From assembly GCA_016185425.1 (NCBI GenBank), contig JACPNQ010000015.1, positions 1 to 64,000 of the forward strand: DNA of 64,000 nt. The letters are read 5' to 3'. Origin of the DNA: Acidobacteriota bacterium (lineage in GTDB: Bacteria; Acidobacteriota; Terriglobia; Bryobacterales; Bryobacteraceae). The notes under the pieces were generated by a model. It was given only the letters and a program-made list of their open reading frames with translations. It made no database searches and was not told where the DNA came from. This document shows, piece by piece, positions 1,862-49,236 of the stretch. Positions within the stretch are counted from its first letter, which is position 1. Each line of letters begins with the position of its first letter. The position numbers and the translations under genes are program-made.

Positions 1862-1866
1862 CTCAG

Positions 1867-13508: not shown

Positions 13509-14999
13509 GTGTCCACCGACCCCAAAGCACCCGAATCCGGGCCGCCACCAACGGCGCGTCCCTCATTGGCCCAGTTGATGGCCACGAAGGCGACGCAGAC
13601 GGTGACAAAGGCTCCGCGGACTCATGTCCCGGCGGCTAAGCGGCCGGGCGCGGCGGCTCCGCCGGAGCGAGAACAGCCGCGCAAGCGCCACCCGGCGACT
13701 TCGGGCGCTGCCGCCCGCACCACCGACCGCTACTTTGAACTTAAGTCCGAGATCCATAAGAAGCTGATTGGCGTGCTCGACGTCGATCGCGTTTCGTCGA
13801 TTCCGAAAGAGCGAGTCCGCACGGAGATCGGCCGTGTCGTCGAACGGCTGCTCGACGATGAGCGTGTGCCGATGACAACCGCCGAGCAGAACACCATCGT
13901 CGAAGAGGTCCTCGACGAGGTGCTCGGTCTCGGCCCTCTGGAGCCGCTGCTGAAGGAGCCGAGCATTTCCGACATCCTGGTGAACTCCTATAACAAGGTC
14001 TTCATTGAGCGCCAGGGCCGTCTGCAATTGACCCCGGTTCGTTTTCGCGATAACGCGCACCTCCTCCATATCATTGAAAAAATCGTGGCTCAGGTCGGCC
14101 GCCGCGTCGATGAAGCGCAACCGATCGTCGATGCCCGGCTGAAGGACGGCTCGCGCGTCAACGCGATCATTCCTCCGCTGGCCCTCGATGGGCCCTCGCT
14201 ATCGATTCGCCGATTCGGCCGTCACGTTATTACGAGCGACGAGATGATCGGCAATCAGACGATCATGCCGGCGATGCTCCAGTTCCTTGCCGCGTGTGTG
14301 CAGGCCAAGACGACCATTCTTATCTCCGGCGGTACCGGCTCCGGCAAGACCACCACGTTGAACGCAGTGTCCCGCTTCATCCCTTCGGACGAGCGGATCA
14401 TTACGATCGAGGACACCGCCGAACTGCAGCTCCAGCAGCGCCACGTTATTAAGTTTGAAACGCGTCCGCCGAACCTCAACAAGGAAGGCGGGATCAATCA
14501 GCGCCAACTCGTGCGAACGGCGCTCCGCATGCGTCCGGACCGCATCGTCGTCGGCGAGTGCCGCGGGGCTGAAGCGCTCGACATGCTGCAGGCGATGAAC
14601 ACTGGTGTTGAGGGATCGATGACAACGATCCACGCAAACTCACCGCGCGACGCCTTCTCCCGTCTGGAAGCGATGATCCTGATGGCCGACCTCGAGATCC
14701 CGACGAAGGTCATCCTGCAGCAGCTTGCCAGCGCCATCAAGATGGTTGTCCAGGTTTCGCGCCTGCAGGACGGCTCGCGTAAGATCATCAACATCGCCGA
14801 AGTCGTCGGTATCCACAACGACCACATCGAAGTCCGCGACATCTTCCGCTTCCGGCGTATCGGCGTTTCGGCGGAGGGCAAGGTGCAGGGACGCTTCGAA
14901 TGGAGCGGCGAAACCCCGGCCATTCTCGATCGCCTTCGCATCAGCGGGATCACGTTACCCGAGGGCATCTTTGATGAAGCGCTCGGCGTAAACATATAA
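13509..14999 (+). CDS. cpaF: CpaF/TadA-type secretion ATPase
   Basis: 496 residues from GTG 13509; an internal ATG at 13578 is the other possible start. The first ~75 residues are low-complexity, Ala/Pro/Arg-rich. An N-terminal helical domain follows (DRYFELKSEIHKKLIGVL), then the type II/IV secretion ATPase core: Walker A GGTGSGKTTT near residue 276, the acidic box TIEDTAELQL, and the His box TTIHANSPRDAFSRLEAM. Such ATPases power Flp/Tad pilus assembly or related secretion. No tad/flp/cpa partner gene is in the window; the only companion is a 46-residue membrane peptide directly downstream. Confidence 0.93.
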   Translation: MSTDPKAPESGPPPTARPSLAQLMATKATQTVTKAPRTHVPAAKRPGAAAPPEREQPRKRHPATSGAAARTTDRYFELKSEIHKKLIGVLDVDRVSSIPKERVRTEIGRVVERLLDDERVPMTTAEQNTIVEEVLDEVLGLGPLEPLLKEPSISDILVNSYNKVFIERQGRLQLTPVRFRDNAHLLHIIEKIVAQVGRRVDEAQPIVDARLKDGSRVNAIIPPLALDGPSLSIRRFGRHVITSDEMIGNQTIMPAMLQFLAACVQAKTTILISGGTGSGKTTTLNAVSRFIPSDERIITIEDTAELQLQQRHVIKFETRPPNLNKEGGINQRQLVRTALRMRPDRIVVGECRGAEALDMLQAMNTGVEGSMTTIHANSPRDAFSRLEAMILMADLEIPTKVILQQLASAIKMVVQVSRLQDGSRKIINIAEVVGIHNDHIEVRDIFRFRRIGVSAEGKVQGRFEWSGETPAILDRLRISGITLPEGIFDEALGVNI

Positions 15000-24039: not shown

Positions 24040-24270
24040 TCCTACTCCCGTGCGATCAGTTGTGGTACCCGGAATTTTCCGGCGTGCCGGATGCGCAAAT
24101 TTTTGTATTTGAGATGTAATTATCGTTAGCTTGGAAGTCCTTTTTTTTCAGTGTCATGGCCCAGTCGTATTACATTGGTAACGAAACCGGCAAACGAAGA
24201 ACCTAGTCCTTCCAGTAATTTGGTACTTGGAAAAAACTCTATATCTCCTACACTGGTGATGGAGATTCTG

Positions 24271-24714
24271 ATGGCAGCCGCCAAGTGCCCCGTTTTACCG
24301 GCCCCGATCGCCTACGAGATGGCACGTGTATTACTTGTCGATGACGATCCGGCGTCGCGCTTAACCCTGCAGACGGTTCTGCGGGCGGGCGGATACGGTG
24401 TCGATACGGCCGCATCGGCGGCGGAGGCCATCGCGAAGATGGACGACAAGGAGTACTCCTTGGTATTAAGCGACTTGCACATGGAGTCGTTCGAGTCGGG
24501 CCTTCGGGTCGTGGCCCATGCGCGAGCGCTCGATTACCGTCCGGCGACGGCGATTTTGTCTACGTGGCAGCCGGAGCAGTATGAGACCGCGAAGATGGCG
24601 GGCACGATGCTGATCGAAACGGAGAACATTCCGGAGTTGCTCGGGCAGGTGGCCGGGATGATATCGGGGCGGGCGCTCCGGCTTCTGAGCCGGAGCATGC
24701 GGGCGCGGAATTAG
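24271..24714 (+). CDS. Stand-alone response regulator receiver protein
   Basis: 147 residues if started at ATG 24271, which has GGAG six bases upstream; ATG 24319 would start right at the domain and also fits. The receiver domain opens MARVLLVDDDPASRL, has the phosphoacceptor Asp in LVLSDLHMES and ends around the final helix, with no output domain. It may relay a signal from a kinase elsewhere. It precedes the seven-gene cluster from 24847 by 132 bases and could control or belong to it. The region 24040-24270 is AT-richer than its surroundings and contains CCGGAATTTTCCGG at 24069-24082. Confidence 0.8.
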   Translation: MAAAKCPVLPAPIAYEMARVLLVDDDPASRLTLQTVLRAGGYGVDTAASAAEAIAKMDDKEYSLVLSDLHMESFESGLRVVAHARALDYRPATAILSTWQPEQYETAKMAGTMLIETENIPELLGQVAGMISGRALRLLSRSMRARN

Positions 24715-24846: not shown

Positions 24847-25236
24847 ATGCTGCGGATTCGGCAGGTTCAACTTGATGCGTTATCCCAGGCCGAGATGGAT
24901 CGGTTCGTGGGGCAGTTGGTGGTCCGGATTGGCCATGAATTCCCGGAGAAGTTTGAGGAGTTAGGGGAAGGACGGGTCCGGGAATTTGTGCGGCGCGGTG
25001 TGGATGATGGACAAAAGTTCCGTATCCGGCTGGAGGGCGCACTCGCAACCTTCGTGGTCTTGCGCTGGCAATATGGGGAGCAGTTCGAGTTGTCACCCGA
25101 CCGGCTCTGGGCACGCGACGTGCTGGAGCATCCGCAATTGCCCGATGCGGTGAAAATTTCGCTGATCGCCGATCGTTTTGAATCGCGTGTGAGGGGCAGA
25201 ACGATTGTGAAGGAGATACCGCGTGGCGTTTCCTAA
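24847..25236 (+). CDS. Short acidic protein of T6SS/eCIS-accessory type
   Basis: 129 residues from ATG 24847; TTG 24835 is a possible start, better spaced from AAGGGAAGG at 24815-24823. The sequence MLRIRQVQLDALSQAEMDRF, then LGEGRVREFVRRGVDDG, WARDVLEHP and ISLIADRF follows a pattern I recognise from small proteins encoded beside PAAR, VgrG and LysM genes of type VI and contractile-injection loci: an R-x-x-Q-x-x-A opening, V-x-x-G-V near the middle, and a W-A-x-x-x-L motif. Biochemical function is unknown. It opens the cluster to 37109 and is 18 bases before the next gene. Confidence 0.7.
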   Translation: MLRIRQVQLDALSQAEMDRFVGQLVVRIGHEFPEKFEELGEGRVREFVRRGVDDGQKFRIRLEGALATFVVLRWQYGEQFELSPDRLWARDVLEHPQLPDAVKISLIADRFESRVRGRTIVKEIPRGVS

Positions 25237-25254
25237 TCGACACCGGAGGACGTT

Positions 25255-25830
25255 ATGCATCTGATCTGCAGGCGTTGCGGCTCGGAAGTAGAACATGCAT
25301 GCTCGCCGTCCAAAGCGATGGGCGAATCGGTGATGCCGTGCGCGTTAAAGGGCGCGCTCTGGGTTTATGTCACCGATATGGCGGGAAACGGGATTGAGGG
25401 AGTTGGCGTGAGCGTGGACCGAACCAACAAACGGACGGACAAGATCGGGTTTGCCGGATTCGATCCTTTGGAGCCGGGGACAGCGCGGGTGGAACTGACA
25501 GAATTGACGGGTTCGGCGGCGGTGGAATTTGAGCTGCCGGAGGTGAAGACGTTCGAAGCCTCGATCGCCAACGGGCAGATTTCGATGGTCGAATTTCAGC
25601 TTTCGAGCTGGATTGAGATCTACGTGCAGGATAAGGCGGGCAAGGCGGTCTTTGATCTGACGGTGAAGATCAAACTGCCAAACGGGGAAGAGCGGACCGA
25701 GAAACTGACGCGCGATAAATTGACTTCGAAGAACGTGTTCCGGATTGGAAAGATCTGGCGGGGCGATTGCCAGATATCGTTCCCCGAGGTGTGCGACGCG
25801 GAATGGGCGGAATTGGTGGAGGGGATCTAA
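25255..25830 (+). CDS. Cys-motif Ig-like protein of unknown function
   Basis: 191 residues from ATG 25255 with GGAGG a few bases upstream. The N terminus LICRRCGSEVEHAC has C-x-x-C and one further Cys, a possible metal-binding knuckle. Two beta-sandwich-like units follow: ALWVYVTDMAGNGIEGVGV and later SWIEIYVQDKAGKAVFDL. Both have the shape of carboxypeptidase-regulatory or SdrD-B domains. No signal peptide or membrane helix is seen. Its stop directly abuts the ATG of the LysM gene, so the two are translated together. It may be an adaptor or chaperone for the large protease two genes on. Confidence 0.6.
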   Translation: MHLICRRCGSEVEHACSPSKAMGESVMPCALKGALWVYVTDMAGNGIEGVGVSVDRTNKRTDKIGFAGFDPLEPGTARVELTELTGSAAVEFELPEVKTFEASIANGQISMVEFQLSSWIEIYVQDKAGKAVFDLTVKIKLPNGEERTEKLTRDKLTSKNVFRIGKIWRGDCQISFPEVCDAEWAELVEGI

Positions 25831-26580
25831 ATGGCTACTGTCATCGACGGGGATTGCATTCTGAGTATCGCGAAGGCGCTGGGAATTCGGGATTATCAGA
25901 CGCTTTGGGACGCGAATGGCACGTTGAAAGCGACGCGGCCGAATCCGAACATGCTGGTGGAGGGCGATACGGTGGTGGAGCCGCCGAAGACCAAGAAGGA
26001 AGTCCGAAAGACCGGGAAGCGCTGGACATTTGTCGTGCCGGACGAACAGAAGGCGTCGCTCCATATCGTTCTTCTCGGCGCCGACGCGAAACCGCTAGCG
26101 GAGGCCGTGTGGGCTCTGAGCGAGCCCCTGACGGCGAATGGAACGACGGGGGCGGATGGGGCGATCAAGGTTGATAATCTGCCGGTGGACAAAAAGAAGG
26201 GCGTGTTGAAGGTGACGCCGAAAGCGGCTGCCTCAACGCCGGCTACGACGACCACTACGACATCCACTTCGGGTCCGCCGCCGTATCCCGCTCCGATCAA
26301 GGCGGCCGATTTCAAAGATCCGGTCCGCGCCGCCGATCCATCGGATGCATTTGTGGAGTGGGAGTTAAAGATTGGCAGCCTGCCATCGCACAAGCACGAG
26401 TCCGGTGTGCTGGCGCGATTGCACAATCTGGGCGCGGGCTGCGACGCGGGCGATAACGGAGCCCGTACGGCGATCTCCGTGAAAGCCTATCAGCGCGCGT
26501 TTCTGAATCAGTCAGCGCCATCCGGAGCACCTGCCGACATTCAAGACTCCATTCGCGACCGTCACGATAAGAAGACCTAG
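25831..26580 (+). CDS. LysM-domain protein with C-terminal PG-binding-like region
   Basis: 249 residues. Residues 1-50 form a LysM-like domain (DGDCILSIAKALGIRDY, LWDANGTLKATRPNPNMLVE, then GDTVVEPP), which binds N-acetylglucosamine polymers. A beta-rich middle and a Thr/Pro linker follow. The C terminus (residues ~180-249, VLARLHNLGAGCD, VKAYQRAFLN) resembles the peptidoglycan-binding-like part of LysM proteins seen next to contractile-injection genes. It has no signal peptide, as in those relatives. It starts on the base after the previous stop and ends 9 bases before the metzincin gene. Confidence 0.75.
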   Translation: MATVIDGDCILSIAKALGIRDYQTLWDANGTLKATRPNPNMLVEGDTVVEPPKTKKEVRKTGKRWTFVVPDEQKASLHIVLLGADAKPLAEAVWALSEPLTANGTTGADGAIKVDNLPVDKKKGVLKVTPKAAASTPATTTTTTSTSGPPPYPAPIKAADFKDPVRAADPSDAFVEWELKIGSLPSHKHESGVLARLHNLGAGCDAGDNGARTAISVKAYQRAFLNQSAPSGAPADIQDSIRDRHDKKT

Positions 26581-26589
26581 GAGCCCGCC

Positions 26590-29500
26590 ATGAAACGCAC
26601 AGTCCGGGTCGCGCGGACGGCCCACGACCTCGATCACGTCAACCGCCTTCGCTTTCCCGCGTTCCACGTGCTCGATCTGCATTTGAAGGCAGGCGCGAAG
26701 ACGAGCAAGAGCTATCTGGCGCCTGAGACGCCGGCGCCGAGCGCGCCCGATAGCGGATCGGACGGTTTTCATTTCGTCCCGGAGAAAGAGACGATCGAAA
26801 TCCACTACGAGATCGACGATAAGTTCGGGATCGCCGATGGCGGCAAGATTGAGTTCTTCACACGGTTTGACGATACACCGCTGTGGACGCTGGACCTGAC
26901 CGTGTTGGGCGCGGACTGGGTTTCGCATGGGAAGCATATCGTCAAGTGGGACGGCCGAACGGTAAAGCCGACGACCGCGCAAACCGGTACGTCGACCGGC
27001 GCCGGGATGACTCACGACCTGACGGCGCTTACCGTGGACACGACACAGCACGCCGATTTTCCGGATGGGTACGTGACAATCCAGCACGGACCCTACAAGG
27101 TGAAGCTGACTGTGACGACGACGGCGGAGCCGGAACTGGCGACGCGCGTGCCGTACGCGTGGACGCATTTCCATATATTGATCAAGAGCATCGAACTGGC
27201 GCTAGGGGAAAAGGAACTGGTACCGGCGGCGACTGTGGACGACGATCAACACAAGCGCGACGAGGCGGTGCGGAAGCAGATTGAGACCGATGGCGGGCTT
27301 CCGGCGGACACGGCAACCGATCCGCGGAAGGTCATTCTAATCAGCAATGTGTTTAAGACAGCCGCGACCCAGATGGACGACGACACAGGCTTTACCGAAT
27401 ACAAGGCGATGTGGGGCAAGGGCCCGAGCATCCCGGTTGTCGCGAAGATCCGGCTGGCGGCATCGGATGACAGCGAGGTGAAGCTGGACGAATCCGACAA
27501 GGGGGCGGTGGCGCTGGGGAAGGCGAAGTTTCTGTGGGATTGGGAAGATCCGGACGAGGCGAACACACAGACGAGCTTTCCGAAGAACTTCATCGACGCG
27601 GCGATCGATTACGACAAAGCGACGACGGGGCCGAAGGGCGACAACTGCCACGTCGACCGGGGCGGTAAGCGCGGTCCCAGCGCCGATCCGGTATTTCCGG
27701 TGCAAGCGGGGTATGCGGCGAACGCGACGCTGACGAACGGGAAGTTCCCTTTCAAGGTGGAAGCCGCGGCAACGCGGAAATGGGCGTCATTGAGCGAAGG
27801 ATGGACGAGCGGGAAACTGAAGGGCTGCACGGGGGCCGTGTTTCAGCCGAGCCGGATGGCTGGCGATAACTATGTGATTCAGGTGTATCTTGCCTACGAT
27901 AAGCCGGCGAAGGATAAGTTAACGCTCGATGCGGATACGCAGCCGCTGGTTGCGCCGGATGCTATCAAGAAAAAGACCGGCACATTTCAAGTGTGGCGGG
28001 AAGTGCATATTGCGCGCTACATCAGAAAGAAAACGTCGATCAGCGATTTTTCCACGCAGTTCGGAGCGGCGAAGACGGACTATATGAACGCTTATTTGAA
28101 CTTGAAGGATATTACGACCGCCGACGACAAGTACTTAATCGCGGCGCACAAGAATCCGGTCACAGCGACTACGGCGATCGACTATAACCAGGTTTGCAAG
28201 GACGCCATGACGGGTACGGGGTCGTGGATATTCACGAATCATATTGTCGTGGACCCGGACGCGGATCACACCACGACTGAGGCGGCGTTTTTGCTGCGGC
28301 TGTACGAAAAGATGGTGAAGCGGGCGCACTTCGCATTGAACTCCGCGGCGGCTGGCTACGGGATCGGCGCGATCAGCAGGGCGGGCAATGTGGTGACTGT
28401 TCAAATCGGCAGCGGCCACGGTTACGAAGTAGACGACTGGGTGATGACTACCGGCGTGACGGACGGTTCTTACGATGCGCGGTCTAAAGTGACTGGAGTG
28501 ACGGCGGACTCCATTACGTTCGCCAATACGGGAACCGACGGCTCTTCGACCGGAGGCGACGTCTACTATGCGCACGCCGATCGGGATTTTCGGGAACTTG
28601 CGGCGGCGGCGAGTTGCACGGAAAAAGACCTGGCGTGGGAGGTGGGAACAACGACTTTACCGGCACCATCGACACCAGCGTTCACCATTGACGCTAAGCC
28701 ACCGGTATTCCGCATTGGAGGAGAGATCACATTCACGACGACCACCGGGCACGGGCTGTCGACCGGGAAGAGCATTACCATCAGCGGCGTGGGCGATTCG
28801 AGTTTTGACGGTACCTTTACCGTAAAGGACGTGAAGTCGGCAACGGTGATCACCGTTGCCAAGGCGGGAGCGACGGCGCAATCGGGCGGCGGCGAACTGA
28901 AGTACCAAGAAAACGTTACCGCGACCATCACCAAAGTGAAGCGTGCCATGGTGGATGTGGCGACATTCACAACATCGGCGGCGCATGGCCTGGCGGTGAG
29001 CGACCAGATCACGATATCCGGCGTTGTGCAGCCGGGGTTCAACGGAAGCTATGCAGTGAAGGCGAAGACGACGACAACGTTCGATGTGGATTGCACAGGC
29101 GCCGTCCTTGCGGAAGCAGCGGCGACCGGAACGATTGTCAAGGAAATCAAGCGGACCATCGCGCCAGCGAAGGAGGCCGGGGCTTCAAAGATTTCGAACA
29201 CAACGAAATTCTGGACAACCGCCGACCATGGATTTGCGGCGGACAATATGGTCGTCGTAACCGGGGTGGGCGAGAGCTCGATGGATGGAACTTACAAAGT
29301 CCTGACGACGCCAACAACGAAGAGCTTCACGGTGAACATGGGCGGGGTGGAGCGGATCTCCGGGGGAGGGACCGTACAAAAGTCCGATGACGAACGCATG
29401 GCAAGGTTTGGGCGTACGCAGACCTGGCTGAAGGACTGGAAACTGCACACGCTGGTGCAATATTCGAAGAACATGAATTTCCAGATGCCCGGAACCGACC

Positions 29501-29958
29501 TTGTCAGCCGGTTAAGCCTGATGGCGGGAGGCAAGACAGCCGCGTCGAAAGACGGGGTCGTCATCATGCACTTCGAGAATGTCCATTCGATTGTGGACGA
29601 GGTGAACGGCGCTTCCCCGGCACCGGCGGATATCGGGGATATGATTTACCTGCTTGGGGAGGCGATTGATGTGTCGGACGCGACACGAAACCGGTGCGCA
29701 TTCGTTTTCTATCGAAGCGATGTGCAGACGTTTGTCCATGAAGTGGGCCATCACTTGTTCCTGCCGCACGCGAAGTATCCGACGACGGGGAATACACCGG
29801 GAGGATTCCAGGTGGACCGGCATGACGATGACGACGACAAGTGCACGATGTCCTATAACCATCCGACGCGGAGCTTTTGCGGGTTATGCCAACTGCGGCT
29901 TCGGGGATGGACCGCACTGCAATTGAAGAAAGACGATGCGCTTAACAAGAAGCCATAG
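26590..29958 (+). CDS. Giant metzincin-like metalloprotease with tail-fibre-like repeats
   Basis: 1122 residues. The C terminus holds a zinc site H-E-V-G-H-H-L-F-L-P-H at residues 1050-1060, giving three His ligands with metzincin spacing, and a Met-turn CTMSY at residues 1085-1089. The Gly common at the eighth position is Phe here. Residues ~600-930 contain four degenerate repeats with the pattern H-G-x-x-x-x-D/K-x-I-x-I-x-G-V, then F-D/N-G-x-Y/F-x-V. These look like beta units of phage tail proteins (E1_FCCH-like). The first 600 residues have no family I recognise. The N terminus lacks a Sec or Tat signal, so export, if any, would use another route. The next gene overlaps its end by 23 bases. 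Confidence 0.75.
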   Translation: MKRTVRVARTAHDLDHVNRLRFPAFHVLDLHLKAGAKTSKSYLAPETPAPSAPDSGSDGFHFVPEKETIEIHYEIDDKFGIADGGKIEFFTRFDDTPLWTLDLTVLGADWVSHGKHIVKWDGRTVKPTTAQTGTSTGAGMTHDLTALTVDTTQHADFPDGYVTIQHGPYKVKLTVTTTAEPELATRVPYAWTHFHILIKSIELALGEKELVPAATVDDDQHKRDEAVRKQIETDGGLPADTATDPRKVILISNVFKTAATQMDDDTGFTEYKAMWGKGPSIPVVAKIRLAASDDSEVKLDESDKGAVALGKAKFLWDWEDPDEANTQTSFPKNFIDAAIDYDKATTGPKGDNCHVDRGGKRGPSADPVFPVQAGYAANATLTNGKFPFKVEAAATRKWASLSEGWTSGKLKGCTGAVFQPSRMAGDNYVIQVYLAYDKPAKDKLTLDADTQPLVAPDAIKKKTGTFQVWREVHIARYIRKKTSISDFSTQFGAAKTDYMNAYLNLKDITTADDKYLIAAHKNPVTATTAIDYNQVCKDAMTGTGSWIFTNHIVVDPDADHTTTEAAFLLRLYEKMVKRAHFALNSAAAGYGIGAISRAGNVVTVQIGSGHGYEVDDWVMTTGVTDGSYDARSKVTGVTADSITFANTGTDGSSTGGDVYYAHADRDFRELAAAASCTEKDLAWEVGTTTLPAPSTPAFTIDAKPPVFRIGGEITFTTTTGHGLSTGKSITISGVGDSSFDGTFTVKDVKSATVITVAKAGATAQSGGGELKYQENVTATITKVKRAMVDVATFTTSAAHGLAVSDQITISGVVQPGFNGSYAVKAKTTTTFDVDCTGAVLAEAAATGTIVKEIKRTIAPAKEAGASKISNTTKFWTTADHGFAADNMVVVTGVGESSMDGTYKVLTTPTTKSFTVNMGGVERISGGGTVQKSDDERMARFGRTQTWLKDWKLHTLVQYSKNMNFQMPGTDLVSRLSLMAGGKTAASKDGVVIMHFENVHSIVDEVNGASPAPADIGDMIYLLGEAIDVSDATRNRCAFVFYRSDVQTFVHEVGHHLFLPHAKYPTTGNTPGGFQVDRHDDDDDKCTMSYNHPTRSFCGLCQLRLRGWTALQLKKDDALNKKP
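28384..29378 (+). repeat. Four tandem tail-fibre-like repeat units in the metzincin gene
   Basis: Units near 28384-28570, 28684-28905, 28909-29140 and 29141-29378. Shared features are SGHGYEVDDW, TGHGLSTGKS, AAHGLAVSDQ or ADHGFAADNM, then a G-V step, then a D/N-G-x-Y/F-x-V turn and a Thr/Val-rich strand. Identity is low, so they are old domain copies rather than recent DNA repeats. Confidence 0.6.
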
Positions 29959-31456
29959 CCGCGCGGCGGTATTTTTCGCGCTGTTGTGCACGGCGTGCGA
30001 TTTGGCACGCGGGTTTCCGCAAGGAGCTGGGAAGAAAATGATTCAGTACGAACTCAAAGCCCGCAAGGCCCGGTTCGCTCCGGATGAGCCGGTACAATTG
30101 GAACTGCGCATTGCAAACAACGGCTCCGCGGCAGCAGACCTACCTAATCCGGCGGGACGGGGAGCGGACCCCGTCTATTTGATTACGCCGGATGGCGCGC
30201 AAAAGCCGGAGCGAATCGCGGCGCGCGACCTGAACGGCGTTTCGAAATTCATAGCGGCGCCCGCGGAGCGGATTCACATTGGAGCGGGCGGCGAGTGGAC
30301 GGGATCCGTCCGGATTCCGGCGTCGAGAGTACATTCGCCGGGCGTATACCGGGTCGCATCGCAGTTCCAAGGAGGAGCCGCCGTGATCGAAAGCAATGTC
30401 ATCGAGATCGCGGTGGACCGGTTCCAGCCATCGCTTGCGGCGGCGGGCTATGGGATTGAGACATCGCGGGCCGGCAATGGACAGCTTTTGTTTTTGCAGG
30501 GCGGCACCGCAGTTTACAAGACACGATACGTGGAAACGCGTCCTTCGATCGCCGAGACCCGCGTGGAACCGCCGTCCTTGCTTGAGATACTTCCGGCGGA
30601 GGCCTCCGACATCGGACTTCCGCATCGCAACGGGCCTTTTTATGACGAGATGGCGCAATGGGTGATGTGGCGGCAGAAGCACGAGGTACATTTGCTCTCG
30701 TCGGCGGGGGAACGGCGGGCGACGACGGTTAAGGCAAATGTGACGCGCCTGGCTCAGCCACCGCTAAAGACGAGCGGCGGCGGGATTCACGTTCTGGCGC
30801 TGGCGAATAACCCGGCGGAAGTGACCCTTCTGCTGTTCCCGCCTGGAAAGGGCGCGGCCGGTGAGATGGCCTGGACGCTGCCACTCGATGCACGGGCAGA
30901 CGGGATCGGCGCGACGTTGGGACCGGCCGCAAACAATGTGGAGGGGCACGTGGCGGCGGTGGCGTCGACGAAAGAAGGCGCTCTGGTGCAGCATGTGCGG
31001 TACAAGGACTTTCGAATTCCGGATGCGTTCAACAGCGTGTTGCTCCCAGGCTATCGGCCCGTGGAGGGCGCGGCACTTGGGATGCACGGGAACGGGGACG
31101 GTTCGGGGCGTGTGGGACTGTTCGTGATGTCCGATGCGGGTTTGGCGTTTGCGGAGCTGTTGTTTCCGGTGGGATCGAGCGGGAGAGTGTTATCGATCAC
31201 GCTGTTGGGGAAACTGGAGCGAGCGCCGACCGGTAGCGCGGTACATTACTTTACGCCGGCAGGGGCCGCGGAGCCCAGGATGGCAGCGGTTGTGGCGACC
31301 CCGGACAAGGGGCTCCTGCGCCTGTTTGCAGGAGCGCTGCGTCCGGTCTCCGTGCAGGGGCAAGCGACCAATCCGATTCTGCTTGTGCCAGGGAAGGATG
31401 TGACGTTTATCGTTTACTTGCGGGCGAACGGTATGCCGTACTTAGAGCCGCTGTAG
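29936..31456 (+). CDS. Exported protein of unknown function in the cluster
   Basis: 506 residues from ATG 29936, overlapping the protease gene by 23 bases. The N terminus has basic residues, a hydrophobic run and ALLCTAC, a signal peptide that could be a lipoprotein signal, though Cys at -3 is unusual. An Ig-like region follows (VQLELRIANNGSAAADLP). From about residue 170 there are repeated beta strands such as HVLALANNPAEVTLLLFPPG, which could form a propeller. No catalytic motif is visible. Position between the protease and the Clp ATPase suggests an envelope component of the same system. Confidence 0.65.
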   Translation: MRLTRSHSRAAVFFALLCTACDLARGFPQGAGKKMIQYELKARKARFAPDEPVQLELRIANNGSAAADLPNPAGRGADPVYLITPDGAQKPERIAARDLNGVSKFIAAPAERIHIGAGGEWTGSVRIPASRVHSPGVYRVASQFQGGAAVIESNVIEIAVDRFQPSLAAAGYGIETSRAGNGQLLFLQGGTAVYKTRYVETRPSIAETRVEPPSLLEILPAEASDIGLPHRNGPFYDEMAQWVMWRQKHEVHLLSSAGERRATTVKANVTRLAQPPLKTSGGGIHVLALANNPAEVTLLLFPPGKGAAGEMAWTLPLDARADGIGATLGPAANNVEGHVAAVASTKEGALVQHVRYKDFRIPDAFNSVLLPGYRPVEGAALGMHGNGDGSGRVGLFVMSDAGLAFAELLFPVGSSGRVLSITLLGKLERAPTGSAVHYFTPAGAAEPRMAAVVATPDKGLLRLFAGALRPVSVQGQATNPILLVPGKDVTFIVYLRANGMPYLEPL

Positions 31457-33717
31457 TGAAAGCGATGGGAGAGAGATCGCCTGGAATCGAGTTAGCGTGG
31501 CGCGTCGCGGCTATTGAGGCGGCACAGAGTTGCTATTCCCAAATCGAACCTGCGCATTTTCTGATCGGAATCTGCTCGATTGACAAGTGCCTGACCCAGA
31601 CGGCGATGGAGCGGCTGCGGCTTTCCGCAAAGGATGCCGAAACGGCGAAGGCGGAATCCGAAGCCGCGTGCGCACTGATAACAAGCGCGGGAGGCGAGGT
31701 CACCGAGTTGCGGCGAAAGCTGCGGAAGCAGTTGGGTAATGGAGGGCGGCCGCCGGAAGATGGAAAAAAGATCGGGCGTTCGGCAGCCAGCCACGCCGCG
31801 TTTGAACGAGTGGCGGCATGGACGCCAGATCCTACGCTGACGCACTTGCTTATGGCGCTGGCGGAGGAAGACGCTCTTGCCGGCGTGCTCAAGGAATTCG
31901 GCGTGGACGCCGCAGTGATTCGGAAGGGCTCTGTTGCGGCGGCGCCTTTGCTGGCCAAGTATGGCCGCGATCTGACGGAGTTGGCGCGCGACGGGAAGTT
32001 GCATCCTTGCATCGGACGAAGGGATGAGTTGCTGCAGATGGTGCGGTCACTGAGCCGCGCGACGAAGAATAATCCGCTGCTCATCGGCGAGGCGGGAGTG
32101 GGGAAGACGGCGATCGTTGAGGGACTGGCGTGGCGGATCGCACAGGGGAAGTCGCTGCCGGGGAAGCGGATTGTTCAGTTGCAGATTGCAGAGCTCGTTA
32201 GCGGAACGAAGTATCGCGGGGAGTTTGAAGAACGGCTGATGGGCATTCTGCGGGAGGCGGCGCAGGACGCGGGACTGATCGTGTTTATCGATGAGATCCA
32301 TGGCGTGGTGGGCGCGGGCGATAGTTCCGGAAACATGGACGCGGCCAACATCATGAAACCGGCGCTGGCGCGCGGAGAATTGCGCTGCATCGGCGCCACG
32401 ACGATTGCCGAGTACAGAAAGTACATCGAGAAAGACCCGGCGCTGGAGCGGCGGTTCCAGGTTGTGAGTGTGGACGAGCCATCCATGGAAGAGGCCGTGG
32501 CGATTCTGGAGGCTGGATACCTGGAGCGCTTTCAGAAGCGGCACGGCGTGCCAATTGAAGCCGCGGCGGCGAAGGCAGCCGTGGCGCTGTCGGCGCGGTA
32601 TCTGCCGGACAGGAGGCTTCCGGACAAGGCGATCGATTTGTTGGATGAGACATGCGCGATGGTGGCGGTGCCGGTGCTGAGCGCAATGCCGGGAGAGAAG
32701 CCGGACACCGTTAGCGGCGTGGTAACGGCGGAGTCCGTGGCGGAAGTGCTCTCCAGGTGGACGGGCATTCCGGTGGGACGGATGGGCGAGGGCGATCGGG
32801 AGCGATTGCAGCACATGGCCGAGGAGTTGCAGGAACGGGTGATTGGGCAGGATCATGCGTGCGAACAGGTATCGCGCGTGGTGCAGAGGGCACGGGCCGG
32901 GTTGAAAGCGGCGACGCGGCCGATTGGTGTCCTGCTGTTCACAGGCCCGACTGGTGCCGGCAAAACCGAATTGGCGAAAGCGACGGCGGCGTTCCTGTTC
33001 GACAGCGAGCGGGCGATGTTGCGAATCGACATGAGCGAGTTCATGGAAAAGCACAGTGTGTCGCGGCTGATCGGAGCGCCGCCGGGGTACATCGGGCACG
33101 ATGAAGAGGGACAATTGACGGGCGCGCTCCGGAGGACGCCCTACTGCGTTGTACTGCTCGATGAAGTGGAGAAAGCGCATCCGGATGTCTTAAACCTGTT
33201 TCTGCAAGTGTTCGACGATGGGCGGCTGACGGACAGCAAAGGGCGCACGGTGGACGCGACGAATGCGTTGTTCATTCTGACGTCGAACGTGGGCGGCGCG
33301 GCGGGAAGGGTTCCGATCGGTTTCCGGCCGGAGGAGATTGCGGCGACGTCGGCGGCAGCACGGGAAGAAGTGGGGAAGGCGTTCCGGCCGGAGTTTGTGA
33401 ACCGGTTGGACGAGGTGGTGGTATTCTCGCCGTTGTCGCCGGAGGACGCGGCGCGGATTGTGCGGTTGATGCTGCGCGGGTTGGAGAAGTCACTGCAGGC
33501 GCAGGGGATTGGCTTGGAGGCAACCGAGGACGCGGTGGCCTGGTTATGCCGGACGGGATATGACCCGGTGTACGGCGCGCGGGCGTTACGGCGGGCGATC
33601 GCGCAGCACGTGGAAGACCCGGTGGCGGATGCGATTTTGGGTGGGACAATCCGGGCGGGGTGCTCGGCGATCGTGGATTATTCGGACGGCGCATTGCGGA
33701 TTGTCGCCGACAAATAG
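31456..33717 (+). CDS. Clp/Hsp100 AAA+ ATPase, ClpA/ClpC-like
   Basis: 753 residues from GTG 31456, sharing bases with the upstream stop (TAGTG); ATG 31465 is also possible. A Clp-N-type domain (residues ~8-150) is followed by AAA-1 (Walker A GEAGVGKT at 211-218, Walker [11 protein letters not shown]) and AAA-2 (GPTGAGKTE at 497, [20 protein letters not shown]). The long ClpB/ClpV coiled-coil M domain is missing, as in ClpA. An I-G-F tripeptide at residues 621-623 (VPIGFRPEE) sits where ClpA/ClpX/ClpC carry their ClpP-binding loop. It could feed a ClpP-like protease or act like ClpV on a protein assembly. The kinase gene follows after 44 bases. Confidence 0.9.
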
Positions 33718-33761
33718 CACCGGGCATTGCTTGTGCGCGACAGGAGTAGGATACTTCGGCA

Positions 33762-36700
33762 ATGTCACGCGAATGGAAGATCGGCGACCGGCTGGAGGCG
33801 CGCTGGGAGATCCACAAGATCATGAAAGGCGGGATGGGCGTGGTGTATGTTGTCCACGACCACGACTGGAACGAGGCGCTTGCCGCGAAGACGTTTCAGG
33901 ATGCGGTGTTCGCGCGAAATCCCCGGACGAAGCCGATGTTCACGCGGGAGGCGCTGGCGTGGGTGCAATTAGACATGCATCCAAACATTGCCCAGGCGCT
34001 GTTTGTGCAGGAGATTGAAGGCAAGCCGGTGCTGTTCCTGGAGTATGTCAGCGGCGGCGATTTGAGCGAGTGGATCGGGACGCCGCGTCTACTTGAAGAC
34101 CTCGGGCAGACGCTGCGATTCGCGGTGCAGTTCTGCGACGGGATGATTCATGCGCGAGCGAAGGGCGTGGAAGTGCACCGCGACATTAAGCCGCAGAATT
34201 GTTTGATCGCCGCCGATGGCACGCTGAAGGTGACGGACTTTGGGCTGGCGAAGGTGTTGGACGTAGCGGATGAGCCGGGGGAGGAAGGCGACTTTCAGCC
34301 GGGATCGTTATCGTTGAGCCGGACGGGAAACGCGGCGGGGACGGTGACGCATATGCCGCCAGAACAGTTCACCGATTCCAAGCATGTGGGGGTGACGGCG
34401 GACATCTACTCGTTTGGCGTGATGCTGTTTCAGATGCTGACCGGGAGGCTGCCGTTTTCGGGGCGGAACTGGGATGACTTTGAGCAGAAGCATCGTTATG
34501 AGGCGGCGCCGGTTGCCGAACTGCAACCGCCGGGAATGCGCATGGTGGTGGAGCGGTGCCTGGCAAAAAGGCCGGAAGACCGGTGGCAGGACTTCGGCGA
34601 AGTGCGGGCACCGCTGGCGCACATGTACGAGGTGCTGACGGGGAAGCCGGCGCCGAAGCCCTACGATGGTTTCAATCCGGATGTGCGGGTGTGGCTAAAC
34701 AAGGGCGTTTCTCTAGCAGCGCTGGGCCTGCGGAAGCAGGCGTTGCAGTGCTATGAACAGGCGCTGGCGATTGATCCGAACTATGGGGAGGCGTGGTCCA
34801 ACAAGGGGAACATCCTGCGCGAGGATGGCATGCTGCAAGATGCGCTGGCCTGCTACGACAAGGCGCTAAACGGGAATGATGGGTTGGACCTGGCGTGGTA
34901 CAACAAGGGCGCGACGCTTGAGATGTTGGGAAGGCAGGGGGAGGCTCTCCAGTGTCTGGACCGGGCGCTGGCGATCAATTCGAAGTTGGCGCGGGCGTGG
35001 TCGAGCCGTGGCGTGGCGCTCGAGGCGCTGGGGCAGCGGGCGGAGTCGATGGCGAGCTATATGCGGGCCGTCGCGCTGGACCCGCGGCTGACGGCGGCGT
35101 GGTCGAACCATGGGAACCAACTGCGGAACATGGGCCAGTTGGAAGAGGCGCTGCAATGCCACGAGAAGGCGTTGGGCTTGCAGGAGAATTTGCCGGAGTG
35201 CTGGTACAACAAGGCGAATGTGCTGTCGGATTTGAAGCGGTATCCAGAGGCGCTGGCCTGCTTTGACCGGGCGCTGGCGATTCGGGAAGACTTTGCATTG
35301 GCGTGGGGAGGCAAGGGAAACGTCTTCATGGCGCTGGGGCAGTTAGAGAAAGCGCTCTCCTGCTATGAGCGAGAGGTCGCCGCGGACGGGAGCAACGCGA
35401 CCGGCTGGTATAACAAGGCCGTAGCGCTCCAGAGGCTGGGGCGGCTTCCGGAAGCGCTGGAGGCACTGGACAAAACGCTGGACCTGAACGGGAAGGACAC
35501 TGAGGCATGGATGCGGAAAGCGGCTGTACTGGCGGCGTTGGGCCGGGACGATGAAAGCGATGCCTGTTACGTCGCGGTGATCTCGATCGATCCGAAGAAC
35601 GCTCTGGCATGGCATAACCGCGGGGTGAAGGCGAAGGCGATGGAACGCCTGGAAGAAGCGCTGCACTGCGAAGAGCAGGCGGTGATGCTGGATCCGAAGT
35701 TGGACGAGGCATGGCTTGGAAAAGCGAATTTGCAGGCGGACCTAGGGAAGACAGACGAGGCGCTGGCGACTTACGACCAGTTGCTGCGGTTGCACCCGAA
35801 GTTCGTTTCGGGGTGGTTCAGCAAGGGCGCGACGCTGGGGAATGCGGACCGTTTCGCGGAGGCGCTGGTTTGTTTTGAACGGGCGGGGGAGCTGGGGCAT
35901 CCAAAGGCAGCAGCGGCGGCGGCGCAATGCCGCGCGGCGTTGGAGCCTGAGCCGGAAGAACCAAGTCTAACGGTGGAACAGTGGCACAACACCGGCGTCG
36001 ATATGGCGAACAAGGGGAAACTGGCGGAGGCTCTCATCTGCTTCGACAAAGCGATTGAGAAGAGTCCGAACGCGGCGGAGTCCTGGTATGGGAAAGCAAT
36101 CGTATTAAACAAGCTGGGGCGGCAGGCGGAGTCATTAGCCAGTTACGACAAGACGATCGCGCTTTCCCCCGGGTACGGGCCGGCGTGGCTCAGCAAGGGA
36201 ATCGTACTATCGACGGCGTTCCAGCGGCATCAGGAAGCGCTGGAGTGTTTTGAAAAGGCGCAGCAGTTGAATTATCCGGCGGAAGAGGCGATTCGACTGT
36301 GCAAGGAGGAGTTGGCGAAGGGCGGTTCGTGGCATCAGAGAGGCATCGACCTGGATGCGCAGGGGAAGCCGGCGGAGGCGTTGGAGTGTTTCGAGAAGGC
36401 ACTGCAGGCGGCGCCGCAACAGTCGGTGTCATGGTTCGGCAAGGGAGCGGTGCTGGGGAAGTTGGGGCGGCACGAGGAAGAGATCGCGGCGTATGATGAG
36501 GCGCTGCGAATTGCGCCGGGATTTGCGCCGGCGTGGTACAGCAAGGGCCGTGCGGTGGCCGGATATTTGAAACGGTATCGTGAGGCGCTGGAATGCTTTG
36601 AGAAGGCCAATCAATTGGGGCACGCACACGCGGCGCAGGGGATTGCGATTTGTCAGCGCGCGTTGGCGGAGGAGGAGGCGAAAGCGGCGCCACCACCACC

Positions 36701-37109
36701 ACCACCACCTCCTCCTCCACCGCCGGCTCCTGTTGTGGATGCGGCAGAGTGGCACAGGCGGGGGCACGCGATCGTATCGCAGGGCGGGAATCCGGCGGAG
36801 GCGCTCGCGTGTTTCGAGAGGGCGCTGGCGATGGAGCCAGGGATACCGGAGTCATGGTGGGGAAAGGCAGTGACGCTGCTGAACTTGGGCAGGCTGGACG
36901 AAGCGTTGATGGCGTATGACCAGACGATCCGGCTGAACCCTTCGGCATCGGGGCCATGGGTCAGCAAGGGCGCGGCGCTTTACCAGGCAGGGCGCTATCG
37001 GGACGCGTTGTGGTGTTACGAGCGCGCGAGGGAGTTAGGAGACTTGCAGGCCTGGCAAGGTTCGTATCTGTGCAAGCAGGCGCTGGGAGAGTTGAAGCCG
37101 CCGAACTAG
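33762..37109 (+). CDS. Ser/Thr protein kinase with 21 TPR repeats
   Basis: 1115 residues. A Hanks-type kinase covers residues 1-285: Gly loop MKGGMGVVY, Lys in ALAAKTF, catalytic HRDIKPQN (H139, D141), and DFG at 159-161, so it should be active. No transmembrane helix follows. From residue ~307 to the end I count 21 TPR units of about 34 residues, each starting with Trp (W-x-x-K/R-G). The last twelve form four three-TPR modules. Residues 977-988 are twelve prolines in a row. It probably binds partners through the TPR solenoid and phosphorylates components of this cluster. It is the last gene; its stop shares CTAG with the convergent gene. Confidence 0.93.
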   Translation: MSREWKIGDRLEARWEIHKIMKGGMGVVYVVHDHDWNEALAAKTFQDAVFARNPRTKPMFTREALAWVQLDMHPNIAQALFVQEIEGKPVLFLEYVSGGDLSEWIGTPRLLEDLGQTLRFAVQFCDGMIHARAKGVEVHRDIKPQNCLIAADGTLKVTDFGLAKVLDVADEPGEEGDFQPGSLSLSRTGNAAGTVTHMPPEQFTDSKHVGVTADIYSFGVMLFQMLTGRLPFSGRNWDDFEQKHRYEAAPVAELQPPGMRMVVERCLAKRPEDRWQDFGEVRAPLAHMYEVLTGKPAPKPYDGFNPDVRVWLNKGVSLAALGLRKQALQCYEQALAIDPNYGEAWSNKGNILREDGMLQDALACYDKALNGNDGLDLAWYNKGATLEMLGRQGEALQCLDRALAINSKLARAWSSRGVALEALGQRAESMASYMRAVALDPRLTAAWSNHGNQLRNMGQLEEALQCHEKALGLQENLPECWYNKANVLSDLKRYPEALACFDRALAIREDFALAWGGKGNVFMALGQLEKALSCYEREVAADGSNATGWYNKAVALQRLGRLPEALEALDKTLDLNGKDTEAWMRKAAVLAALGRDDESDACYVAVISIDPKNALAWHNRGVKAKAMERLEEALHCEEQAVMLDPKLDEAWLGKANLQADLGKTDEALATYDQLLRLHPKFVSGWFSKGATLGNADRFAEALVCFERAGELGHPKAAAAAAQCRAALEPEPEEPSLTVEQWHNTGVDMANKGKLAEALICFDKAIEKSPNAAESWYGKAIVLNKLGRQAESLASYDKTIALSPGYGPAWLSKGIVLSTAFQRHQEALECFEKAQQLNYPAEEAIRLCKEELAKGGSWHQRGIDLDAQGKPAEALECFEKALQAAPQQSVSWFGKGAVLGKLGRHEEEIAAYDEALRIAPGFAPAWYSKGRAVAGYLKRYREALECFEKANQLGHAHAAQGIAICQRALAEEEAKAAPPPPPPPPPPPPAPVVDAAEWHRRGHAIVSQGGNPAEALACFERALAMEPGIPESWWGKAVTLLNLGRLDEALMAYDQTIRLNPSASGPWVSKGAALYQAGRYRDALWCYERARELGDLQAWQGSYLCKQALGELKPPN
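35610..37106 (+). repeat. Four three-TPR modules in the kinase gene
   Basis: The twelve C-terminal TPRs form modules at residues 617-740, 741-856, 857-996 and 997-1115. Each module starts W-H-x-x-G, continues with a W-x-G-K-type TPR, then W-x-S-K-G. The third unit ends with a longer helix of the type CFEKAxQL followed by a late Cys (x-x-C-x-x-x-L). The polyproline run lies at the end of the third module. Confidence 0.75.
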
Positions 37110-39235: not shown

Positions 39236-40677
39236 TTAGTGTCCGCGGAGGCCGGCAAACGCGGATTCGACGATATCTTCGATGGCCGAAACTTCTTGCG
39301 GCGTGAGTTCATACCACTCGCGTTCGCGGCTTTTTTTCCGAGCTTTCCGTTATTTTCGCGGATTAGGCGAATCAGCCGAGTGACCATGTTATCGGGCATC
39401 TCGACCGTATCCATGATCCGCCATACGGCCTCGTCGTGACGGCGAAGAAAATCAATCTCTCGAGGGAGATCGTGTTCGACTGTGCGACGGACGCAGCCGT
39501 AAAGGAATTCCGCGGCTTGTGTGCAATCGAAGTACCGGTAAAGGTCCACAGTGTCGTTGACGACCTCGACATTTTGTTTTGGCGTTGGATTCTATTCGAT
39601 GAAATCCATGAGGAGTGTGCGCGCGCAGAGTAGCGCGGTATTTGTCAATCTGGTCGAGCATGACCGATGACACCGGGAATACCAGTCCGGGCGGCGTGAA
39701 GCGACGTTCCGCCAGCACATGGTGGATCAAGCAGCGGTGCAGCCGGCCGTTTCCATCCTGAAATGGATGCACGTATACGAACCCGAAAGCGGTAGCGGCA
39801 GCCTGGAGTACGGGATCGAGTTGCGCATCGCGCATGCGTTCATTTGTTTCCAGTAGTCCAGACAACAGGGCGGTCAGATCCTCGGGGCGCGCGCCTATGA
39901 ATTCCGGCAACGGGTATCCTTGATGATCCCGTTCACCGAGGAAAACCCCATCCGGCCGCAACCCAATCCGCACAAACCGGGAATCCTGAATGAGCACGCC
40001 CTGCAGGCGCCGTAATTCTTCAGGAGATAGCGTGTGACGGCCCGCCTCCACAACGGCTTGGCTCCAGGGTTCCAGCCGGCCGCGCGGCGGCCGCTCTTCT
40101 TCGATCTGAAAGCTTGCCTGTATATCCGCCAGCAGGAGGAAGCTAGCTGCACGGGCGACGAGTTGCGTGCGGGTGGCGCCCACGACCTTCGCGGCAGGGG
40201 CGGCAAGTTGCAGTTCAATCAGTTCGTCCAGTTCAGGCGTACGGCGAATCATGGGGCAGAATCGTGGTGTACCCAGCAGATTTTTTGAACGCGGTGACCA
40301 CTGGACAACGTCGCCTTACCCGCAAAGTAGCGTTTGCGGTCCAGAACGTCGACAGCAGTGAGCGGCTGTGAATCGGGTAGGTCCAGTGTCGTTTCGCGGA
40401 GGAACTCGAACAGGAACCATACGATCCGGTTGGGCAGTCCCAAGGGCGCGGCCCGGACATAATTCTCGATGACCGCGGGTTCCAGACGATCGAAGATTCG
40501 CCATTCGGCAGTGGCGCGGCGGCTCCCTTTTACGTGGGAATTTGAGATGCAACATGGCTCCCGGACAGGACAAGGGGCAGAGAGTTCATTAACGATGCCA
40601 GCCCAGCCAACGAGCCTGGAATCTGGCGGGACAGTCTTATGCTGGAAGACCTTTTGTGGGGCCGAATTGATCCGCAT
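39236..40677 (-). pseudogene. Fic family AMP-transferase gene broken by several lesions
   Basis: The protein is split across frames. The first piece (ATG 40677) has VNELSAPCPVRE and an interval of about 45 residues missing before IENYVRAAP. Near 40280 the A-run in CAAAAAATC shifts the frame into the Fic core, with SFQIEEERPPR (inhibitory-helix-like, Glu where Gly is usual) and the intact catalytic HPFQDGNGRLHR. Near 39605 a second shift leads into a frame with a TAG that probably replaces a Trp codon, then VDLYRYFDCTQAAEFLYGCV. At 39331-39337 a run of seven T marks a third shift into WYELTPQEVSAIEDI, ending at TAA 39236-39238. The catalytic site survives but the gene cannot give a full product. 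Confidence 0.8.
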
Positions 40678-49230: not shown

Positions 49231-49236
49231 CGGGAA

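What the first reader, a model, noticed from the sequence alone, without database searches (positions are those of the whole stretch)
24847..37109. Seven-gene orphan system: LysM/Ig adaptors, giant metzincin, Clp ATPase and TPR kinase
The sequence shows seven plus-strand genes with gaps of 18, 0 and 9 bases, two overlaps, then 44 bases, so one transcription unit is likely. Parts resemble accessory genes of type VI or contractile-injection loci (short acidic protein, LysM protein, Clp-type ATPase, Ser/Thr kinase), but no sheath, tube, baseplate, VgrG, PAAR or membrane-complex gene lies in 64 kb. Inference: an effector and regulatory module that works with a distant apparatus, or a separate proteolytic system controlled by phosphorylation.
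Basis: partly seen in the sequence, partly recalled or inferred. Interest (0 to 1): 0.88.

Follow-up and report, generated by a model that had tools for sequence, protein, structure and literature searches.

The report
Type VI injected metalloprotease cargo module
Five of these seven genes form a set that recurs, whole or in part and in the same order, in several bacterial phyla, mostly in genomes with a type VI secretion (cell-to-cell injection) machine, and they likely load and deliver a metal-dependent protease into neighbouring cells, while the last two genes, a Clp-type ATPase and a kinase, were seen beside the set only in this strain.

Summary
In detail: seven plus-strand genes at 24847-37109, gaps 18, 0 and 9 bases, overlaps of 23 and 1, then 44. 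It is not one orphan system. Genes 1-5 are a conserved cargo module: gene 5 follows gene 4 in 24 of 25 loci from four phyla, a gene-3 relative precedes it in 20 of 25, and VgrG or PAAR spike genes lie beside it in 4 of 25. TssK, a type VI secretion (T6SS) core protein, is in 21 of 23 gene-4 genomes checked, twice in the host. Gene 2 resembles the VgrG tail of two congeners; gene 3 resembles the LysM/peptidoglycan-binding protein beside that VgrG. Gene 4 is a metzincin-like protease (HExxHxxxxxH, Met-turn; serralysin closest, E 2.4e-4) with an FCCH-like insert. Gene 5 is an Ig plus beta-propeller protein, my immunity candidate. Genes 6-7 are a ClpA/ClpC-type unfoldase (not TssH) and a kinase-TPR protein; neither matched beside gene 4 in 33 distinct related stretches. 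Not shown: secretion, toxicity, immunity. The host assembly shows TssK (and, by eye, TssL and TssM) but no TssF or VgrG core, so its apparatus is incompletely seen. Verdict: new variant of a known kind.

The parts
24847..25236 (+). g1: 129-aa protein of no known family; most relatives are about 230-265 aa and look like two copies of it by eye (L031 has one); possible cytosolic chaperone/adaptor (inferred from position only)
   Evidence: 10 members scanned, one chance-level match; in front of the module in 10 of 25 loci
25255..25830 (+). g2: transthyretin/carboxypeptidase-regulatory-like protein; C-terminal part 118-186 (25606-25812) resembles the C-terminal tail of the T6SS VgrG of two congeners
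   Evidence: fused to the front of g3 in several relatives, similar domain on a PAAR protein in L018
25831..26580 (+). g3: LysM-like start, Ig/TTR-like middle, peptidoglycan-binding-like end; predicted spike-effector tether
   Evidence: homologue directly after vgrG in congeners; relative of the family directly after vgrG in NZ_CP020372.1
26590..29958 (+). g4: metzincin-like metalloprotease, predicted effector
28345..29388 (+). insert in g4 (about residues 586-933), absent from most relatives; four FCCH-like copies by eye
29737..29769 (+). g4 zinc motif HExxHxxxxxH (residues 1050-1060); Phe1057 where classical metzincins have Gly
   Evidence: at least 90% conserved in 89 aligned sequences
29842..29856 (+). 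g4 Met-turn (residues 1085-1089), followed by conserved C1097 and C1100
29936..31456 (+). g5: Ig-like domain plus beta-propeller, export-signal-like start (start uncertain, 29936 or 30038); immunity candidate
31456..33717 (+). g6: HSP100 Clp ATPase without M domain; not TssH
33316..33324 (+). g6 IGF loop (residues 621-623), aligned with the IGL loop of a ClpA segment; predicted ClpP docking
33762..37109 (+). g7: Ser/Thr kinase domain plus about 21 TPR matches

Best explanation
Genes 1-5 (24847-31456) are a conserved cargo module that is predicted to work with a type VI secretion system encoded elsewhere in the genome: gene 4 is a likely delivered metzincin-like protease, genes 2 and 3 would tether it to the VgrG/PAAR spike, and gene 5 would be its immunity partner. 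Proposed cycle: gene 1 (role inferred only from position) keeps the large cargo soluble. The TTR-like gene 2, a free-standing copy of what is the C-terminal tail of VgrG or PAAR in relatives, and the LysM/PG-binding gene 3 dock gene 4 on the spike. Contraction carries it into a neighbour, where the PG-binding and LysM parts would hold it in the periplasm while the zinc site cuts an unknown protein. Gene 5, export-like at its start in 18 of 28 readable members, would cap or sequester the protease in the producer's own envelope. Genes 6-7 are a local addition, gene 6 overlapping gene 5 by one base: a ClpA/ClpC-type unfoldase, likely feeding ClpP, and a kinase-TPR protein that could clear or time unsent cargo (weakest part). 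Shown: gene order and conservation, motifs, homology to spike-linked genes, T6SS co-occurrence. Predicted: folds. Inferred: delivery, protease activity, target, immunity, roles of genes 1, 6 and 7.
For: Conserved set: in the 25 loci (Acidobacteria, Myxococcota/Deltaproteobacteria, Alpha-/Beta-/Gammaproteobacteria, Bacteroidota by record title) gene 5 directly follows gene 4 in 24, a gene-3 relative precedes it in 20, gene 1 in 10. Spike genes in the same stretch in 4 of 25: PAAR and a weak tail-hub match (PF05954 below its cut-off) in L013; TssC, TssG, VgrG and PAAR in L018; VgrG and PAAR in L032; VgrG in L033. TssK in 21 of 23 gene-4 genomes searched (23 of 25 counting two genomes taken for gene 6); the two misses are those of L013 and L018. 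In 150 genomes of the host family 12 carry gene 4, 110 carry TssK, all 12 carry both; Fisher p 0.02. Host: TssK twice (C29, C30), with TssL-, TssM- and kinase-like ORFs by eye behind one. Congeners G004 and G135: TssB-TssC-Hcp-(TssA/TssE-like)-TssF-TssG-TssH-VgrG-LysM/PGB-large protein by eye, TssF, VgrG, PG-binding and (G004) PAAR by Pfam. VgrG tail 741-804 against g2 118-186: E 2e-8; VgrG-linked LysM protein against g3: E 2e-8. Searching the host with that VgrG rings only by its tail, at g2 and four other places. Published: LysM proteins bridge VgrG and effector by co-IP (PMC10673891, passages); a TTR-tailed adaptor delivers a cargo effector with an immunity gene, in modules also found fused to VgrG or PAAR (PMC10435454, passages). 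Protease: motif and Met-turn conserved; serralysin match E 2.4e-4.
Against: No experiment shows delivery, toxicity or immunity. In the host assembly (93.7% complete) neither TssF (found in the five congeners searched) nor a VgrG core rings, and the only TssC-like hit is an isolated ORF. thiG, beside the T6SS core in both congeners, is missing too (no positive control), which fits an assembly gap but also a loss. TssK is common in this family (110 of 150), so the association is modest. In 21 of 25 loci no spike gene was recognised in the stretch held (many flanking ORFs judged by eye only). Gene 5 was not found beside the divergent gene-4 relatives of two congeners (L066, L068) nor in L036: 30 of 33 distinct stretches have it. 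Gene 5 is large for an immunity protein; two members (L030, L033) have an in-frame stop just upstream and cannot carry a signal, eight more are unclear, and database starts of the window's gene 5 and of five close relatives lie at the core Met, after any signal. The zinc motif lacks the classical metzincin glycine. Gene 1 matches no family.
Confidence: 0.7

Rival explanations
1. The seven genes are one separate, phosphorylation-controlled proteolytic system without a secretion machine: kinase, Clp unfoldase and metalloprotease act together.
For: Tight spacing and a 1-base overlap between g5 and g6; same strand; a g6 relative (42%) lies beside a kinase and TPR genes also in G090 (L065), so genes 6 and 7 do belong together.
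Against: No g6 or g7 tblastn match (E <= 1e-10) in 33 distinct gene-4 stretches, some short; the exceptions I know are a Clp fragment in the T6SS locus of L018 (E 2e-9) and a short kinase-like ORF by eye upstream in L012. Genes 3-5 travel together and with spike genes; the Clp loop points to ClpP, not to the metalloprotease.
Confidence: 0.12
2. The cargo belongs to an extracellular contractile injection system (phage-tail-like particle) or other contractile device rather than to a T6SS.
For: LysM proteins are core parts of such systems (PMC10673891, passages); the g4 insert resembles folds of phage endosialidase and tail-tube entries.
Against: TssK in 21 of 23 gene-4 genomes; T6SS-type TssC, TssG and VgrG in L018; VgrG-tail homology in T6SS loci of congeners. 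Phage-type sheath genes in the host were not searched.
Confidence: 0.08
3. Genes 1-5 are T6SS-linked but not a toxin-immunity pair: gene 4 is a released protease or matrix protein and gene 5 a co-delivered, perhaps glycan-binding, partner.
Against: Gene 5 on the same strand directly behind gene 4 in 30 of 33 distinct stretches is the usual effector-immunity layout; the HExxH effector VgrG2b has a periplasmic immunity protein (PMC6899460, passages).
Confidence: 0.25

Closest known systems
RIX/TTR secreted-adaptor modules (Rte1-Rti1; PMC10435454, passages seen)
   Same: TTR-like adaptor, then cargo effector, then immunity gene; the same adaptor-effector modules occur fused to VgrG or PAAR
   Different: no RIX domain was looked for here; two adaptor-like genes plus g1, a metzincin-like effector, and carriers outside Vibrionaceae
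LysM / PG_binding proteins of vgrG loci (PMC10673891, passages seen)
   Same: stand-alone LysM or PG-binding protein just upstream of the effector; there co-IP showed that LysM proteins bridge VgrG and effector
   Different: the window module has no vgrG beside it; [quoted passage not shown]
VgrG2b / Tpe1-Tpi1 metallopeptidase effector-immunity pairs (PMC6899460, passages seen)
   Same: HExxH zinc peptidase effector with an envelope-located immunity protein downstream
   Different: window protease has HExxHxxxxxH plus Met-turn, is not fused to VgrG, and its partner is an Ig-propeller protein; no VgrG2b entry among the 6 profile matches at E <= 1
Serralysin / alkaline protease (metzincins)
   Same: best solved-structure match of the gene-4 profile, over zinc motif and Met-turn (1kap, E 2.4e-4)
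   Different: Phe for the motif Gly; N-terminal domains not shared; no export signal or RTX repeats seen by eye
Listeria metzincin plus TIMP-like lipoprotein pair (PMC8235301, abstract and outline seen)
   Same: metzincin encoded beside an envelope lipoprotein partner
   Different: phage-derived secreted pair without an injection machine; partner is TIMP-like rather than Ig-propeller

Membership tests
T6SS cargo-effector module | carriers encode a T6SS | tested here: met
   TssK in 21 of 23 gene-4 genomes, the two misses carrying TssC/TssG/VgrG/PAAR (L018) or PAAR (L013) beside gene 4; 12 of 12 in the host family against 110 of 150 overall
T6SS cargo-effector module | genetic linkage or homology to spike components (VgrG, PAAR, Hcp or loading domains) | tested here: met
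   4 of 25 loci with VgrG/PAAR; g2 against VgrG tail and g3 against VgrG-linked LysM protein, both E 2e-8; none in the window itself
T6SS cargo-effector module | complete T6SS in this host | tested here: inconclusive
   TssK x2 and TssL/TssM-like ORFs by eye found; TssF, VgrG core and canonical TssC not found in a 93.7% complete assembly
T6SS cargo-effector module | T6SS-dependent delivery, toxicity and neutralisation by the partner | not testable with these tools
   needs experiments
metzincin peptidases | HExxHxxxxxH zinc motif and Met-turn | tested here: met
   H1050, E1051, H1054, H1060 and M1087 each conserved in at least 90% of 89 sequences
metzincin peptidases | Gly at the eighth position of the zinc motif (HExxHxxGxxH; recalled consensus) | tested here: not met
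   Phe1057, at least 90% conserved; hence called metzincin-like, not filed as a metzincin
TssH/ClpV | curated TssH score and M domain between D1 and D2 | tested here: not met
   TIGR03345 637 bits against cut-off 885; 39 residues between D1 and D2 marks against 140 in TssH of a congener
ClpB disaggregase | curated ClpB score and M domain | tested here: not met
   TIGR03346 812 bits against cut-off 1232; M domain absent
ClpP-partner unfoldase (ClpA/ClpC type) | xGF/xGL ClpP-docking loop in D2 | tested here: met
   IGF in g6; xGF in 15 of 15 relatives aligned (three of them PGF), absent in the TssH row
ClpP-partner unfoldase (ClpA/ClpC type) | curated ClpA score | tested here: not met
   TIGR02639 666 bits against cut-off 993; so not filed as ClpA
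extracellular contractile injection system | phage-type sheath and baseplate genes in the genome | not tested

The most novel reading that the evidence does not exclude
Gene 4 founds a family of type VI-delivered, serralysin-like proteases (with Phe for the motif Gly) spread over at least four phyla, neutralised by an Ig-beta-propeller inhibitor unlike known immunity proteins; in this strain the module has recruited its own ClpP-docking unfoldase and kinase-TPR switch, so that unsent protease cargo is cleared under phosphorylation control: a secretion cargo operon with built-in regulated disposal.
Probability: 0.2. Interest if true: 0.75.

Novelty: new variant of a known kind. Interest (0 to 1): 0.52.

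Why it matters
Protease effectors of the T6SS are a small group (recalled), and the searches here found no paper on T6SS effectors of the acidobacterial lineage to which the host seems to belong (none; 18 papers hold both terms, none of the 12 listed is about it by title). That placement is inferred: genomes of its family hold the same contigs or places as records titled Solibacteraceae and Bryobacterales. A cross-phylum module with a recognisable signature (TTR, LysM and PG-binding adaptor genes, metzincin-like protease, Ig-propeller partner) gives a way to find T6SS cargo far from vgrG, the hard case for effector discovery, and makes delivery and immunity directly testable in laboratory strains.

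Tried and rejected
Gene 6 as the T6SS sheath-recycling ATPase: rejected (no M domain, ClpP-type loop; congeners have a separate TssH in their T6SS locus). Seven genes as one conserved system: rejected. The isolated TssC-like ORF at G000:C3 as the apparatus locus: no T6SS neighbour recognised by eye among ORFs of C3:1-60000. Phage origin: the viral-contig scan gave 6 pattern matches and no relative. Plasmids: a gene-1 relative found nothing, a gene-3 relative one plasmid place beside vgrG. Whole-model fold searches of g4 were filled by the FCCH insert, so the protease domain was not tested by fold; no serralysin is in the rows shown. The g5 profile gave only weak matches, best residues 36-135 of a toxic extracellular endopeptidase (E 0.0013), suggestive but not relied on. 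A broad g6 search rang in 49 of 396 genomes of the phylum; of the 13 neighbourhoods looked at, most appeared by eye to be ordinary ClpC/ClpA settings. DNA repeats in the g4 insert: none found. Base composition: third-position GC of g1-g5 (0.66-0.73) is a little under most neighbours (0.70-0.82), no clear sign of foreign origin. Papers holding T6SS with metzincin (10 listed), with serralysin-like, effector and immunity (9 listed) and with metalloprotease effector (5 listed) show no such module by title and abstract start; this is no proof that none is in print. Passages of PMC11148199, PMC13373197 and PMC3482391 did not show it either.

Full report
1. The observation. Pfam over 26 other ORFs of the window shows a Fe-alcohol dehydrogenase, DUF1501/PSCyt pairs, RuvAB, an MFS transporter, a type II/IV secretion ATPase, outer-membrane barrels and the like, three without a match, and no T6SS part. 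So the module stands alone in its neighbourhood.

2. Genes 1-5 are a conserved module. The gene-4 search gave 93 proteins at E <= 0.001, the window's own included; the last eight match only 10-22% of it. A scan of species genomes gave 25 loci (records of the host genome may be left out there): Acidobacteria including Solibacteraceae and Bryobacterales, Myxococcus, Pyxidicoccus, Paraliomyxa and unnamed Deltaproteobacteria, Acetobacteraceae, Rubrivivax, Colwellia and other Gammaproteobacteria, and one Bacteroidota. ORF calling, iterative profiles and tblastn give: gene 5 directly behind gene 4 in 24 of 25 (not in L036, where gene 4 is only partly matched); a gene-3 relative in front in 20 of 25 (not seen in L024, L032, L033, L034, L036; L034 starts inside gene 4); gene 1 in 10 of 25. 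Ten more stretches from the host family were taken, two of them repeats of L016 and L012; over the 33 distinct stretches gene 5 follows gene 4 in 30 (not L036, nor the congener loci L066 and L068, whose gene 4 is divergent and larger). In several Bryobacterales loci gene 2 is fused to the front of gene 3; in L070 the order is g1-g2-g3-g4-g5 as in the window. One relative of gene 4, P0074, carries a LysM-type start and a peptidoglycan-binding-like stretch as a natural fusion in front of the protease (by eye).

3. The module belongs with type VI secretion. Beside gene 4 lie PAAR with a weak tail-hub match (PF05954 below its cut-off) in L013; TssC, TssG, VgrG and PAAR in L018; VgrG and PAAR in L032; VgrG in L033: 4 of 25, the other flanks having been judged by eye. 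TssK was searched in 25 genomes, 23 of them gene-4 carriers (L017, L029 and L030 share genomes with other loci and were not given again): 23 of 25 ring, 21 of 23 carriers, the misses being the genomes of L013 and L018. In 150 genomes of the host family 12 have gene 4 (E <= 1e-10), 110 have TssK, and all 12 have both; Fisher p 0.02, or 0.026 in the more complete genomes. As TssK is common there, this is support, not proof. The host has TssK at C29:1615-2904 and C30:1663-2946, both near contig starts, with TssL-, TssM- and kinase-like ORFs behind the first (by eye).

4. The homology link. Congeners G004 and G135 carry, by ORF order and by eye, TssB, TssC, Hcp, TssA- and TssE-like genes, TssF, TssG, TssH, VgrG, a LysM/PG-binding protein and a 673-aa protein; a PAAR protein follows in G004 and was not among the ORFs picked in G135. 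TssF rests on Pfam in both, and VgrG, PG-binding and PAAR of G004 on Pfam. The last 64 residues of this VgrG match g2 118-186 (E 2e-8) and the LysM protein matches g3 1-113 (E 2e-8) in two-sequence BLAST. When the whole VgrG is searched in the host it rings at five places, always by its tail: g2, one on C35 and three on C25. The two outer-membrane proteins of this window with a carboxypeptidase-regulatory domain do not ring, so the link is not just that common domain. At C35 the tail is fused to a LysM/PG-binding protein, at C25 the two are neighbours on opposite strands. So the host holds several scattered relatives of spike-linked genes. In a named record, a Thiodictyon plasmid, a relative of gene 3 (found with the gene 3 of L022) is annotated directly after vgrG.

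5. What is known of such domains. LysM proteins of vgrG loci were shown by co-immunoprecipitation to bridge VgrG and effector, with an immunity gene beside them (PMC10673891, passages). TTR domains at the ends of VgrG, PAAR or a RIX protein load cargo effectors, and adaptor-effector-immunity triplets occur (PMC10435454, passages; review PMC10433429, passages). A different HExxH effector, VgrG2b, acts in the periplasm and is met by a periplasmic immunity protein (PMC6899460, passages). Metallopeptidases among polymorphic toxins are described in PMC3482391 (passages).

8. Genes 6-7. Gene 6 falls short of the curated ClpB, ClpA and TssH cut-offs. It has no M domain and has a loop IGF aligned with ClpA's IGL, with xGF in all 15 relatives aligned and not in the TssH row. 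Neither gene has a tblastn match (E <= 1e-10) in the 33 distinct gene-4 stretches; some stretches are short, L018 holds a weaker Clp fragment in its T6SS locus, and L012 a short kinase-like ORF by eye. In 150 family genomes only the host and two others have a gene-6 match at E <= 1e-150; in one of these, G090, it stands beside a kinase and TPR genes without genes 1-5, and the other contig is too short to tell. So genes 6-7 look like a separate unit that has joined the cargo operon here; the 1-base overlap with gene 5 suggests coupling. A disposal or timing role is a guess.

9. Limits. The host assembly lacks TssF, found in the five congeners searched, a VgrG core and a canonical TssC. thiG, next to the T6SS core in both congeners, is missing from it too (without positive control), which points to an assembly gap but does not prove one. 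No phage-type sheath was searched. Nothing here shows delivery, activity, target or immunity.

Noticed in passing
window 24151-24714 (+): Response-regulator receiver protein 132 bases upstream of gene 1; may or may not belong to the unit.
   Followed up: partly
G000:C3:28461-29957 (-), locus L003: Isolated TssC/VipB-like ORF (PF05943, E 2.1e-59) with no other T6SS gene recognised beside it.
   Followed up: partly
G000:C35 (L092 8782-10002) and G000:C25 (L093 10564-11851 and 19470-19997): Further dispersed copies of the VgrG-tail domain, two of them with LysM/PG-binding parts, in the host far from any vgrG seen; possible additional cargo modules.
   Followed up: partly
L066 8317-14622 (-) and L068 9136-15406 (+), same genus as the host: Much larger gene-4 relatives: one ORF of 2101 aa in L066; two overlapping ORFs (918 and 1183 aa) in L068 behind g1-, g2- and g3-like genes; no gene 5 found beside either.
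   Followed up: no
L069 15577-19524 (-): 1315-aa protein with a weak OmpA match next to a gene-4/gene-5 pair whose gene 4 has an extra N-terminal part.
   Followed up: no
L020 and L021, behind gene 4: Two gene-5-like ORFs in tandem, the first without a clear signal, the second with an export-like start by eye.
   Followed up: no
window 39452-40252 (-): Fic/DOC-domain protein a few genes beyond the end of the unit on the other strand.
   Followed up: no
window 467-4338 and 47809-51759 (-): Two copies of a DUF1501 plus PSCyt/DUF1553 gene pair in one window.
   Followed up: no
window 13509-14999 (+): Type II/IV secretion ATPase (PF00437, E 4.7e-61) in the window, not a T6SS gene.
   Followed up: no
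G000:C30:1-1623 (L039): Proline-rich protein with a repeated motif at the contig start next to tssK.
   Followed up: no
gene 4 residues 350-361 (window 27637-27672): Second strongly conserved block (GDNCH...GGKR) in the N-terminal half of gene 4, function unknown.
   Followed up: no
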